A stretch of DNA of 39,015 nt from a virus. The position numbers and the translations under genes were made by a program. Positions 1-39,015 of the stretch are shown in pieces (the stretch's first letter is position 1; each line of letters begins with the position of its first letter). Where the stretch lies: positions 1 to 39,015 of IMG/VR virus record IMGVR_UViG_3300025889_000030; one strand, given 5' to 3'. A model generated the notes under the pieces. It saw nothing but the letters and a program-made list of their open reading frames with translations. It did not search any database and was not told the origin of the DNA.

Positions 1-127
1 CGAGGAACGGTATCAGAAGATCGAGATCGGTCTGATCAAACGCTGGCCCTCCGGGTGCTTCGAGATCGCCGCCCTCAGCTACTCCGGGGAGCTGGTGTTC
101 CACGGGCCCTACCGCGAGCGCGCCGGC
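1..127. repeat. Terminal direct repeat, left copy (circular closure)
   Basis: Bases 1-127 are identical to 38889-39015. The reading frame of the ParB-like gene continues without a break across the join, so the two copies are one locus in a circular or circularly permuted molecule. A length of exactly 127 is typical of the k-mer overlap left by short-read assemblers, so I infer an assembly overlap rather than a biological terminal repeat. Confidence 0.9.
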
Positions 128-888: not shown

Positions 889-1998
889 ATGAACATGATG
901 ACGAACGGCCGTGCCAGCATCCCGGACCGCTGGATCACGCGCCCGCGTGACGAGACCTACCGGAGCCTCGACGCGCTCTATGAGGCGACCCGGCAGATGG
1001 CCGACAACTCGAACGCCACCGTCCACGACGTCCGCCAGATCGAGGTCGTCACCGACAGCAGCCTGTCCCGGCCGGAGAGCCTGACGGCCCTGGCCCTGCG
1101 GCTGCCGGACGGCTCGCTGACGCAGGCAACGCACTGGTCCTTCGGCCAGATGTGCAGCCTGATCGGTGCGCCGTCCGGCTTCATGCGGGACCTGCCGGCG
1201 CCGGTCGCCGCGGTGCCGCTGCAGTACAAGCTGACGTCGTACAACGGCGAGCTGGTCAAGACCTACGTCGATCAGCGCGACAGCACCCTGCGGGCACTCA
1301 CCTCGCCGACCTACGGGCGGGTCAACGACCACAAGCTGGTCGATGCCATCCGGCAGATCGCCGGCAACGGGGTCGGCGACACCAACTGGATCGCCGCGCA
1401 GATGGCGAACGGCAAGGAGCCGGGCTTCTACGCCTCCGACCGGGACATGTTCGTGTTCCTGGTCGACCGCGAGCGCCCGATCGAGCTGCGTCAGCACAGC
1501 AACAACCGGCTGGTCCGCCTGTTCCGGGGCTTCTTCGCCTGGAACAGCGAAGTCGGCAGCCGGTCGCTGGGCATCAAGACGTTCCTCTACTGCCAGCACT
1601 GCGACAACCGGCTGATCGCCGGTGTCGATCAAGTCGAGCAGATCGTCATCCGGCACACGAAGAGAGCGCCCGAACGCTTCCTCCAGGCCGCCAAGCCGGC
1701 GCTGCTGGAGTATGCGACCGGCTCGACTACCGGCATCGTCGACGCCATCCAGCGGGCGATGAACACCCGCGTCGCCAGCGATCACGACGAGGCGGTCGAC
1801 TTCCTCAACTCCAAGACCAGCTTCTCGCGGTCGGCTGCCAAGGCCGCGCTCGAGCAGCACATGGTCGAGGAAGGCATCCCCGCCCGGTCGGCCTGGGAAA
1901 TGGCCCAGGCGATCACTGCGTTCGCTCGGTCGATCCCGCACCAGGACGACCGGATTGACATCGAGAAGCAGGCGACCAAGCTCCTGAGCGGCCGTTAA
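889..1998 (+). CDS. DUF932-family phage/plasmid-like protein
   Basis: The 369-aa protein resembles the DUF932 / phage-plasmid-like family (TIGR03299-type), which is common on phages and plasmids and has no proven biochemical role. Family-like segments are SPTYGRVNDHKLVDAI near residues 143-158 and ASDRDMFVFLVDRERPIEL near 183-201, followed by a Trp/Phe-rich central part (FRGFFAWNSEVGSRSLGIK). There is no signal peptide or membrane segment. The start at 889 follows a CAGGAG-type ribosome site; ATGs at 895 and 898 are alternatives. It lies directly after the ParB-like gene. ParB and DUF932 genes are often neighbours on mobile elements, which suggests a joint role in replication or early takeover; that is inference. 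Confidence 0.8.
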   Translation: MNMMTNGRASIPDRWITRPRDETYRSLDALYEATRQMADNSNATVHDVRQIEVVTDSSLSRPESLTALALRLPDGSLTQATHWSFGQMCSLIGAPSGFMRDLPAPVAAVPLQYKLTSYNGELVKTYVDQRDSTLRALTSPTYGRVNDHKLVDAIRQIAGNGVGDTNWIAAQMANGKEPGFYASDRDMFVFLVDRERPIELRQHSNNRLVRLFRGFFAWNSEVGSRSLGIKTFLYCQHCDNRLIAGVDQVEQIVIRHTKRAPERFLQAAKPALLEYATGSTTGIVDAIQRAMNTRVASDHDEAVDFLNSKTSFSRSAAKAALEQHMVEEGIPARSAWEMAQAITAFARSIPHQDDRIDIEKQATKLLSGR

Positions 1999-34099: not shown

Positions 34100-34552
34100 C
34101 TACCCTTCTTCATGCTCGATCACCTTCGCTTCACCACCAAGGTTGATAGAGACATGAACCTGTTGACCTTGCCCCTGGCTACGGCTCTTAGCCTCGCTCC
34201 TGTCAAGGATACCGAAGGCTACGTCCTTCCTTACACGGGCATCCACTTCAGTATCTGTCAACAGATCACCAAGCACTTGCACCGCTACTACACGTAGTTG
34301 CTGCAACTTCGCGTGAACACACGCTTTTAAGTACGTGCTTACCCCCTTCTTCTGACTTAACCGCCAACCCTCTTGTTTGGCACGGCTGACGCTGAAGCCA
34401 GATAGGCGTGCTGCATCTGCGTTGGACGCTGCCTGCCCTGTTGCGAGGTACTCACAAAAGCGTCTCTCACGCTCGTTGAGGCCGAGTTCATCGGCTAGCG
34501 TGTCGAGGTCTCTCTGGATCGCTGCCGAGTGGGTTACGACTGGCGCTTCCAT
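34100..34552 (-). CDS. terS: Terminase small subunit-like protein
   Basis: The 150-aa protein has the Terminase_2-type N-terminal DNA-binding region: LGLNERERRFCEYLATGQAA, SNADAARLSGFSVSRAKQEG, then VSTYLKACVHAKLQQL, followed by a helical oligomerisation part (AVQVLGDLLTDTEVDARVRK) and a C-terminal tail. Small terminases recognise the packaging site and hand DNA to TerL; here terL is about 5 kb away, past the fibre genes. Base composition is clearly lower in GC than the rest of the genome, pointing to recent acquisition. The ribosome site is poor, so the start is not certain. Confidence 0.7.
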   Translation of the reverse strand: MEAPVVTHSAAIQRDLDTLADELGLNERERRFCEYLATGQAASNADAARLSGFSVSRAKQEGWRLSQKKGVSTYLKACVHAKLQQLRVVAVQVLGDLLTDTEVDARVRKDVAFGILDRSEAKSRSQGQGQQVHVSINLGGEAKVIEHEEG

Positions 34553-34894: not shown

Positions 34895-35041
34895 ATGCTG
34901 ACGTTCATCACGATCAGCACGGTCTACGGCTTCAACAACGCCGTGCGAGATCACGAGACGATCATCGCCGTCATGCGGTGCAGCGACATCCCGGACACCC
35001 AGGAGTGCCTGGACCTGCACCAGCGGATCCTCCGCGAATAG
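34895..35041 (+). CDS. Small hypothetical protein at the divergence point (48 aa)
   Basis: The frame encodes MLTFITISTVYGFNNAVRDH, then ETIIAVMRCSDIPDTQECLD and LHQRILRE. Codon use is GC-biased like the core genome, unlike the minus-strand gene beside it. There is no clear ribosome site. The N-terminus is mildly hydrophobic and the two Cys could form a pair. A GGCCGC-agt-GCGGCC hairpin follows the stop. Confidence 0.45.
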   Translation: MLTFITISTVYGFNNAVRDHETIIAVMRCSDIPDTQECLDLHQRILRE

Positions 35042-35419
35042 CCCTCACGGCCGCAGTGCGGCCTGCGACGAAAGCCCTGGACCGGCTGACCGTCGTCGTT
35101 GCCACATCTACCTCACCGTCTTTCGCGTGGAATGCCCGCCACCGCTTTCCGCGCTGGCGTGCCTCGCTGTCTCGTTGTCCAGCTCGCTCCGCGGCTATCC
35201 GGCTCCCGGCCTCCCCGGCCGGTGTCCCTGCACTACGGCACGACCGTTCCATTTCCAAACGCCGCTGCATCCCTATCTCCGCGGCAGGGAACGATCGCGC
35301 ACTCCGTTCCGGGCCACCGTCCTACCGATCACGGGTTGTCGTTGCGGTTCGCCGAATCACGCTAACGACTACACACACACACGATCCGGCTGATCGCTGC
35401 GCGAATGGGCCACGACGGT

Positions 35420-35623
35420 TGCGCCCGCCTGAACGGCGGCGCACCCGCCGCGTCCCGGTATCGGGCGGGTTGGCAAGCTGCGGTAGGGAAAGCCCCTTGT
35501 TCATCGCAGGCCGGTCCCTCGCAACGGGGCTTGCCCAACCTCCGCTAGCCAACTGGCGTTCAAGAGGGACCGTGGCTCAGTCGCTGCGCTCCCTGCGCCC
35601 GCACCACTCCCTCTTGAGCGCCA
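35420..35623. ncRNA. Candidate structured RNA or DNA element: four consecutive hairpins
   Basis: Hairpin 1: TGCGCC-(C)-GCC pairs with GGCGGCGCA (35420-35443), 9 bp. Hairpin 2: ACCCGCC (35443-35449) with GGCGGGT (35464-35470). Hairpin 3: GGTTGGCAAGC (35468-35478) with GCTTGCCCAACC (35529-35540, one bulge), continuing as TGCG and AGGGA with TCCCT and CGCA, about 20 bp in all, loop 35490-35514. Hairpin 4: TGGCGTTCAAGAGGGA (35554-35569) with TCCCTCTTGAGCGCCA (35608-35623), 16 pairs with one G-T, then 4 more, and an inner GCGC/GCGC hairpin. Hairpins 1-2 and 2-3 share boundary bases. The strand is undetermined. Confidence 0.5.
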
Positions 35624-35648
35624 CACCGCCGCCCGATCCCTAACCGTT

Positions 35649-35686
35649 TGAAGTCAGCCGGACCGCGCATGTGCGGATGGGCTTCA
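35649..35686 (+). promoter_or_regulatory. Leader hairpin upstream of the first early gene
   Basis: AGCC (35656-35659) pairs with GGCT (35680-35683), CCGC (35663-35666) with GCGG (35673-35676), and TGA (35649-35651) with TCA (35684-35686). It ends 4 bases before the GGAG ribosome site of the 35701 gene and may affect its translation. Confidence 0.4.
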
Positions 35687-35700
35687 GACGGAGACCGACC

Positions 35701-35826
35701 ATGACCGAATACACGCTTCACCTCGACCACGCCGACCAGCTGCTCGCCGACGACCTGATCTTCGGCTGCATCGACGTGCCGGCGGACGACACCGAGGACG
35801 ACGACAACGACTTCACCGTCCACTGA
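35701..35826 (+). CDS. Very small acidic protein, first early gene (41 aa)
   Basis: The product is MTEYTLHLDHADQLLADDLI plus FGCIDVPADDTEDDDNDFTV and a final H. It is highly acidic at the C-terminus, a feature of small phage proteins that mimic DNA or bind host enzymes; that role is inference. GGAG lies 8 nt before the ATG in a leader (ggagaccgacc) almost repeated before the next gene. It is too short for most gene callers. Confidence 0.55.
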   Translation: MTEYTLHLDHADQLLADDLIFGCIDVPADDTEDDDNDFTVH

Positions 35827-35834
35827 CCGACAGC

Positions 35835-35858
35835 GGAGCCCTGGGCAACCGGGGCTCC
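35835..35858 (+). other. Hairpin between two early genes
   Basis: GGAGCCC (35835-35841) and GGGCTCC (35852-35858) form a perfect 7-bp stem with a 10-nt loop. No U-tract follows. It is probably an mRNA processing or attenuation element between the 41-aa gene and the 223-aa gene. Confidence 0.45.
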
Positions 35859-37911: not shown

Positions 37912-39015
37912 ATGAACGAACAAGCCCCCCGGGCGGTCGTGATGCGACCGCTCAACCATCTCGTCGTCTCCGAGACCAACGCCCGGTTCACCGGCCAGAA
38001 GGAGGACCTGAACCCCGTGCTGGTCGCCAGCATCAAGGAGAGCGGCATTCTCCACCCGATCCTGGTGAAGCAGCAGGTCGACGGCACCTTCGACGTGATC
38101 GACGGCAGCCGCCGGCTGGCGGCAGCCAAGAAGCTGAAGCTGACGGAGGTGCCGACGCTGGAGGTCGACGGCGACGGCATGACGTCGATCGCCATGAACG
38201 TCTCGGTTCAGGCGTTGTCGTGCTTCGACAAGTACGACGCCTACCGCCGGCTGATCGCCGAGGGCGTCACCGACGCGCAGATCAAGAAAGCGCTGGGCTT
38301 CGGCACCGACGACCAGAAGGTCGTGCGCGCCATCGGCCAGTTCACGGCCCAGGAGATCGTGAAGCTCCGCAAGGCCGCGGTGACGCCGGCGACCATCCTG
38401 AAGCTGGCCCGCATCCCCACCGAGCACCGCAAGGCGGTTCTCGACGCCTGCGAGCGCGAGTCCGGCGGGCTGACCGACAATGGGCTGGCCCACCACGCCC
38501 GGAACTACTGGCACCGGGACATCAACCCGGCCCGCTTCGAGGCGATCAAGGACGCCTACATCACGCTGGGCGGCAAGGTGTCCGAACCCCTGTTCGACCT
38601 GGGCGACGGCGTCAAGGCCACCCCGGTCGACGGGCACCTGATCGAACCGGCCATCGAGGCGTTCCTGAAGCACAAGGCCGACGAGCGCACCAAGCTGACG
38701 GGCCGGCCAACCCGGTTCACCGCCGGGGTCTACGTCCACAGCTACACCGCCGACAACGGCATCGTGCGCGCCGACAACGTCCCGGAAGTCGATGACGTCG
38801 TGATCGCGGACGCCGGCTTCGCGACGATGGAGGAATACGAAGAGTTCCATGATCGCTGCGAGGCCGAGGCCGAGATCAGCGCCGAGGACGAGGAACGGTA
38901 TCAGAAGATCGAGATCGGTCTGATCAAACGCTGGCCCTCCGGGTGCTTCGAGATCGCCGCCCTCAGCTACTCCGGGGAGCTGGTGTTCCACGGGCCCTAC
39001 CGCGAGCGCGCCGGC
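37912..39015 (+). CDS. ParB/sulfiredoxin-domain protein (5' part; continues at 128-859)
   Basis: The N-terminal ~95 residues are a ParB-like nuclease/CTPase-type domain: LVASIKESGILHPILVKQQ, then the ParB box DVIDGSRRLAAAKKL (61-75). Residues ~105-185 form an HTH-like region (DAYRRLIAEGVTDAQIKKAL; VTPATILKLARIPTEHRKAV). The whole protein, read through the join, is 611 aa. A segment at 38743-38778 nearly repeats 36023-36058. Such large phage ParB-domain proteins are usually early genes of unknown role; no ParA partner or parS array is visible, so partition is not implied. GCGAGG lies before ATG 37912. Confidence 0.85.
   Translation, partial: MNEQAPRAVVMRPLNHLVVSETNARFTGQKEDLNPVLVASIKESGILHPILVKQQVDGTFDVIDGSRRLAAAKKLKLTEVPTLEVDGDGMTSIAMNVSVQALSCFDKYDAYRRLIAEGVTDAQIKKALGFGTDDQKVVRAIGQFTAQEIVKLRKAAVTPATILKLARIPTEHRKAVLDACERESGGLTDNGLAHHARNYWHRDINPARFEAIKDAYITLGGKVSEPLFDLGDGVKATPVDGHLIEPAIEAFLKHKADERTKLTGRPTRFTAGVYVHSYTADNGIVRADNVPEVDDVVIADAGFATMEEYEEFHDRCEAEAEISAEDEERYQKIEIGLIKRWPSGCFEIAALSYSGELVFHGPYRERAG
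38889..39015. repeat. Terminal direct repeat, right copy (circular closure)
   Basis: It is identical to 1-127 and lies inside the ParB-like gene. Removing one copy gives a circle of 38,888 bp with all genes intact. Confidence 0.9.

What the first reader, a model, noticed from the sequence alone, without database searches (positions are those of the whole stretch)
35420..35623. Chain of four strong hairpins in a gene-free region: candidate phage structured RNA, packaging site or origin
Within 204 bases there are two adjacent hairpins of about 20 bp each (35468-35540 and 35554-35623, the second with 16 uninterrupted pairs including one G-T) preceded by two shorter ones (35420-35443, 35443-35470). 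Neither strand shows a convincing protein. Hairpins 2 and 3 share bases, so switching between folds is possible. The site lies at the divergence of early and late transcription and near the small terminase gene.
Basis: partly seen in the sequence, partly recalled or inferred. Interest (0 to 1): 0.8.

Follow-up and report, generated by a model that had tools for sequence, protein, structure and literature searches.

The report
Plasmid-type DNA hairpin in phage
A bacterial virus carries, just before its early genes, a conserved DNA hairpin otherwise found in front of gene clusters on transferable plasmids, where its position and evolution suggest it switches genes on, or starts copying, while the incoming DNA is still single-stranded.

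Summary
The hairpins are real. The strongest (35554-35623) belongs to an undescribed family of hairpin elements on plasmids, mainly of Alphaproteobacteria. A covariance model built without the window finds it at 75 bits, E 3e-16. Members share a 38-nt cap on a 16-25 bp stem whose sequence changes completely while pairing holds: 17 of 27 pairs have two-sided changes and 90-94% of cells pair, against about 70% when shuffled.

The element sits about 90-190 bp upstream of a same-strand gene in 15 of 17 annotated plasmids, often after a chain of smaller hairpins. It recurs in leading-region-like clusters (ParB, DUF3560, DUF932). Tolerated mismatches are mostly G.T on the strand that is template for the downstream gene (17 against 3), so that strand appears to be the one that folds. 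This is how Frpo/ssi single-strand promoters of conjugative plasmids are laid out, but no -35/-10 boxes were found, so membership in Frpo is not claimed.

The window is a circularly closed 38,888-bp temperate podovirus, and the element lies 94 bp before its early operon. No second phage copy was found. I judge it a new variant of a known kind: a plasmid establishment-type hairpin adopted by a dsDNA phage. Function is inferred.

The parts
35554..35623 (-). Main hairpin of the family; 16 uninterrupted pairs below a conserved cap
   Evidence: z -4.4 on minus, -5.3 on plus; held-out model R2 matches 35548-35629 minus at 75 bits, E 3.1e-16
35570..35607 (+). Conserved 38-nt cap CCGTGGCTCAGTCGCTGCGCTCCCTGCGCCCGCACCAC
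   Evidence: Identical over 38 of 38 bases to two copies on Methylorubrum populi plasmid pMPPM04
35468..35550 (-). Second long hairpin, in the place of the 5' accessory hairpin of plasmid copies; its sequence has no significant plasmid match
   Evidence: z -2.6 on minus; no significant plasmid hit; accessory hairpins in plasmid copies
35408..35458 (-).
   Evidence: z -3.2 on minus; similar 5' GC hairpins in many plasmid copies
35457..35468 (-). Outer stem, left half (pairs with 35629-35639), closing a three-way junction
   Evidence: DNA fold of the minus strand; similar enclosing stems in L101, L106, L117, L120
35629..35639 (-). Outer stem, right half
35701..35826 (+). First early ORF (41 aa); its ATG lies 94 bp after the cap, the spacing seen in plasmids
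   Evidence: Sequence; plasmid spacings
35882..36565 (+). Early ORF, 227 aa, no known family, not related to the genes next to the plasmid copies
36688..37047 (+). Early ORF, DUF7694 / phrog_7839
37915..39015 (+). ParB_N-domain protein (continues at 1-859 across the 127-bp end repeat)
   Evidence: PF02195 E 2.3e-10; joining of ends
889..1998 (+). DUF932-like protein (below the Pfam cut-off; phage homologues about 40% identical)

Best explanation
35400-35640 is a composite hairpin element of a family found upstream of operons on conjugative and mobilizable plasmids. It heads the early operon of this temperate dsDNA podovirus. Shown: homology, compensatory stem evolution, fixed place and orientation before genes, and the fold better kept on the template strand. 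Inferred: when that strand is single-stranded, it folds into a chain of hairpins whose capped stem recruits RNA polymerase or a priming factor and starts synthesis toward the downstream genes, as Frpo/ssi sites do on incoming plasmid DNA. In the phage this would give early expression or priming from strands exposed on entry or during recombination-linked replication (it encodes a Rad52-type annealase and an SSB), or from hairpin extrusion in dsDNA.
For: Held-out covariance hit 75 bits, E 3.1e-16. 17 of 27 pairs with two-sided changes, 90.4% paired on plus and 93.5% on minus against 69-72% shuffled, collapsing to at most 45% when slid. In stems 17 A.C against 3 G.T on plus, i.e. G.T on minus; 0 of 5000 shuffles as skewed. 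In 15 of 17 annotated plasmid records the next downstream gene is on the same strand, mostly 90-190 bp away. Four or more plus-strand copies per leading-region-like cluster of pOLGA2 and pI; in pOLGA2 they point toward MobF. Low copy number and mostly plasmid-size contigs. Window spacing cap to ATG 94 bp. Chain-of-hairpins layout shared. Frpo precedent: PMC9849209, PMC11541004, PMC8744291.
Against: No -35/-10 boxes: best scores no better than shuffled sequence, none in the window region. One plasmid (pRm1132f) has the next gene on the opposite strand and P. syringae pHL113 is mixed. No oriT was mapped. The phage is dsDNA, so the single-stranded state is hypothetical. No second phage copy, so selection within phages cannot be shown. 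The window's own wobble cells are balanced (one each way). The strand test is not corrected for relatedness.
Confidence: 0.55

Rival explanations
1. The element is a double-stranded operator: an inverted repeat bound by a plasmid or phage regulator upstream of early or leading genes, comparable to CUP sites bound by ArdK.
For: Lies upstream of genes, several per plasmid, with a conserved core; repeated upstream regulatory sites in leading regions are known (PMC6289460).
Against: A protein site conserves sequence; here most stem positions change freely while pairing persists, and G.T on one strand is tolerated. The long covarying stem is unnecessary for a dsDNA site.
Confidence: 0.15
2. A structured RNA: either a sense-strand 5' leader of the early operon or an antisense RNA from the minus strand.
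For: Lies in the 5' region of genes at constant spacing; very strong fold.
Against: Sense-strand wobbles are rare (3) while mismatches that pair only on the other strand are common (17), disfavouring a sense leader. A minus-strand RNA is not excluded, but in pOLGA2 and pI the neighbouring genes are all on the plus strand. No Rfam match, no promoter or terminator match.
Confidence: 0.15
3. A passenger: a plasmid hairpin (or an assembly chimera) recently captured by one phage, without function there.
For: Only this phage has it: no match in 50,697 phage records or in the pattern and model searches of viral contigs. Flanking DNA has no plasmid match.
Against: The stem sequence differs from every plasmid copy seen yet pairs over 16 bp; spacing to the ATG matches plasmids; phage genes lie on both sides and the assembly closes as a circle.
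Confidence: 0.12
4. A packaging (pac/cos) site.
For: Lies about 1 kb from the small terminase gene.
Against: All homologues found lie on plasmids or islands upstream of non-phage genes.
Confidence: 0.03

Closest known systems
Frpo / ssi single-stranded promoters of F-type and IncI plasmid leading regions (PMC9849209, PMC11541004, PMC8744291)
   Same: Stem-loop non-coding element upstream of leading-region genes, several per plasmid, on the strand that is template for the genes; context of ParB-like, SSB and anti-defence-type genes.
   Different: No detectable -10/-35 boxes; different, GC-rich sequence; mainly Alphaproteobacteria (also Burkholderia and Pseudomonas); here in a phage.
CUP elements of IncN leading regions, bound by ArdK (PMC6289460)
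   Same: Repeated conserved sequence upstream of several leading-region operons.
   Different: CUP is a short dsDNA operator; this is a long hairpin with a covarying stem.
Phage N4 early hairpin promoters used by its virion RNA polymerase (from my own knowledge)
   Same: DNA hairpins serving as early phage promoters with the help of SSB.
   Different: N4 hairpins are 5-7 bp and need an N4-type virion RNA polymerase; none was seen here, though not every ORF was searched.

Membership tests
New plasmid hairpin family (models R1/R2) | Conserved cap plus covarying stem, recognised by a model built without the window | tested here: met
   75 bits, E 3.1e-16
New plasmid hairpin family (models R1/R2) | Oriented, about 100-200 bp upstream of a same-strand gene | tested here: met
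   94 bp to ATG 35701; plasmids
Frpo/ssi ssDNA promoter | Stem-loop formed by the template (transferred) strand upstream of leading genes | tested here: inconclusive
   Strand test and orientation fit on plasmids, but oriT was not mapped and the phage has no transferred strand
Frpo/ssi ssDNA promoter | -35 and -10 boxes in the duplex part | tested here: not met
   Best matches 5.9 of 12 on average, shuffles 6.4; none in the window
Frpo/ssi ssDNA promoter | Sequence similarity to known Frpo | not tested
   No Frpo reference sequence was fetched
Frpo/ssi ssDNA promoter | Transcription or priming from ssDNA by host RNA polymerase with SSB | not testable with these tools
   Needs in vitro or conjugation assays
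Known structured RNA (Rfam) | Match at gathering score | tested here: not met
Intrinsic terminator | Stem followed by T run | tested here: not met
REP/BIME or other dispersed chromosomal repeat | Many copies per genome | tested here: not met
   1-4 copies in 16 carrier genomes, mostly on plasmid-size contigs; weaker copies of a look-alike repeat in one genome, G571

The most novel reading that the evidence does not exclude
A temperate dsDNA phage has taken over a plasmid establishment-type single-strand promoter or priming hairpin and uses it to start its early operon from single-stranded DNA; and GC-rich Alphaproteobacterial plasmids possess a whole undescribed class of such elements without sigma70 boxes.
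Probability: 0.3. Interest if true: 0.82.

Novelty: new variant of a known kind. Interest (0 to 1): 0.66.

Why it matters
Single-strand promoters are characterised for a few enterobacterial plasmids. Published searches used five known Frpo/ssi sequences and sigma70 boxes (PMC11541004), so this GC-rich family would probably be missed. The covariance model gives a way to find leading operons, and thus candidate anti-defence genes, in Alpha- and Betaproteobacterial plasmids. The phage copy would show that dsDNA phages can adopt the same early-expression device.

Tried and rejected
Rfam, tRNA, promoter and terminator scans: nothing. BLASTN against phages: nothing. Relatives of the phage's own early proteins: none in viral contigs for the 227-aa ORF or the ParB protein. 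The ParB relatives on plasmids are remote (about 28%), so the element did not travel with its present genes; the proteins next to it in phage and plasmids are unrelated. The seven looser pattern hits in viral contigs have no stem and no model match. Sigma70-box search across 28 family members: no signal. Cap-only matches in Caenimonas, Lysobacterales and Halosimplex (L108, L116, L121, L125) lack the stem. Stand-alone small hairpin 35443-35470: chance level.

Full report
Observation. The region 35400-35640 is strongly structured: as single-stranded DNA z is -7.5 on the minus strand and -5.0 on the plus strand, with no shuffle as stable. The hairpin 35554-35623 is the most certain (z -4.4 and -5.3), 35468-35550 is good on the minus strand only, and the two small ones form one hairpin 35408-35458 on the minus strand. 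The two large hairpins form a three-way junction closed by 35457-35468 with 35629-35639. No tRNA, Rfam family, promoter-like or terminator-like site is present.

Context. The window is a virus record with a 127-bp direct end repeat, so the assembly closes as a 38,888-bp circle. It has a podovirus portal, a capsid protein, terminase, a tyrosine integrase, a Rad52-type protein and SSB. The large terminase is 48% identical to that of Pelagibacter phage EXVC031P. The element lies between the leftward late genes (TerS 34100-34552) and the rightward early genes, which start at 35701 and include DUF7694, a ParB_N protein running across the contig ends, and a DUF932-like protein.

Discovery of relatives. 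BLASTN of 35380-35700 found no phage but 35 plasmids, the listed hits all through the core of hairpin 35554-35623. Methylorubrum plasmid pMPPM04 is identical over 38 bases. A relaxed search gave 103 plasmid records, some with several copies. A 23-base pattern found 28 genome contigs, mostly plasmid-size contigs of Sphingomonadales and other Alphaproteobacteria, and no viral contig. Folding showed the same capped hairpin with different stem sequences; a few cap-only matches without stem were set aside.

Proof of structure. Members were chosen by the cap, so cap conservation is by construction; the stem was not selected. In 17 sequences, 17 of 27 pairs show changes on both sides, 90.4% of cells pair (shuffled 69%), and sliding by one base drops this to 29-37%. 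An anchored analysis of 24 stems gave 72% Watson-Crick pairs over 22 positions against 39% shuffled. A model of 18 plasmid and genome sequences without the window finds the window at 75 bits, E 3.1e-16.

Which strand. At stem positions, A.C on the plus strand (G.T on the minus strand) occurs 17 times and G.T on the plus strand 3 times, a skew not reached in 5000 column shuffles. On the minus strand 93.5% of cells pair. This suggests that the folded strand is the template strand of the downstream gene. Shared ancestry is not corrected for, and the window itself is balanced (one of each).

Place in plasmids. In 15 of 17 annotated records the next annotated gene is downstream on the same strand, mostly 90-190 bp from the cap: SprT, ParA, DUF945, ParB-like and many unknown genes. 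Exceptions are pRm1132f and some copies of P. syringae pHL113. pOLGA2 and pI carry four and six clear copies in long runs of same-strand small genes with DUF3560, ParB_N and DUF5710. In pOLGA2 these run toward the MobF relaxase region at 48984-52508, as leading genes run toward oriT in F (my own knowledge). oriT was not mapped. Carrier genomes have one to four copies; about 3% of 298 genomes of one order have a match. One genome, G571, has five weaker chromosomal copies that look like an unrelated repeat.

Mechanism. Position, orientation, strand of folding and setting match the Frpo/ssi single-strand promoters that drive leading genes on the incoming plasmid strand (PMC9849209, PMC11541004, PMC8744291). 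One defining feature failed: no -35/-10 boxes. I therefore say that it works like such an element, not that it is one. The start of transcription or priming is inferred. In the phage, single-stranded DNA could arise by end resection on entry or by recombination-linked replication; this is hypothesis.

The phage copy. Its cap is identical to pMPPM04 while its stem differs from all others seen yet pairs over 16 bp. Neighbouring proteins in phage and plasmids are unrelated, and only about 50 bases align to plasmids, so the hairpin moved as a module. No second phage copy was found, so capture without function, or a chimeric assembly, remains possible though less likely.

Noticed in passing
window 1-127 and 38889-39015: Exact 127-bp direct end repeat: the assembly closes as a 38,888-bp circle, and the ParB_N gene runs across the ends.
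   Followed up: yes
L090 30450 and 36830; L086 4819: A second, diverged cap-like motif about 180 bp upstream of the main element on plasmids pMPPM04 and p4.
   Followed up: partly
L089 (P. syringae pHL113), six places: Repeats sharing the core GCTCAGTCGCTGCGCTCC but with different, conserved flanks, in both orientations.
   Followed up: partly
L181, L182, L190 (genome G571): Five chromosomal copies with weaker scores (47-67 bits), apparently a dispersed repeat with a similar core.
   Followed up: partly
L183, L187: Weak model matches near what look like an integrase and a relaxase on chromosomes (read from sequence only), suggesting integrative elements also carry the hairpin.
   Followed up: no
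window 34896-35042 +: Small ORF (48 aa) in the otherwise gene-free stretch between TerS and the hairpins.
   Followed up: no
window 35835-35858 +: Perfect 10-bp GC hairpin just after the first early ORF, resembling part of Rfam sX12 below cut-off.
   Followed up: no
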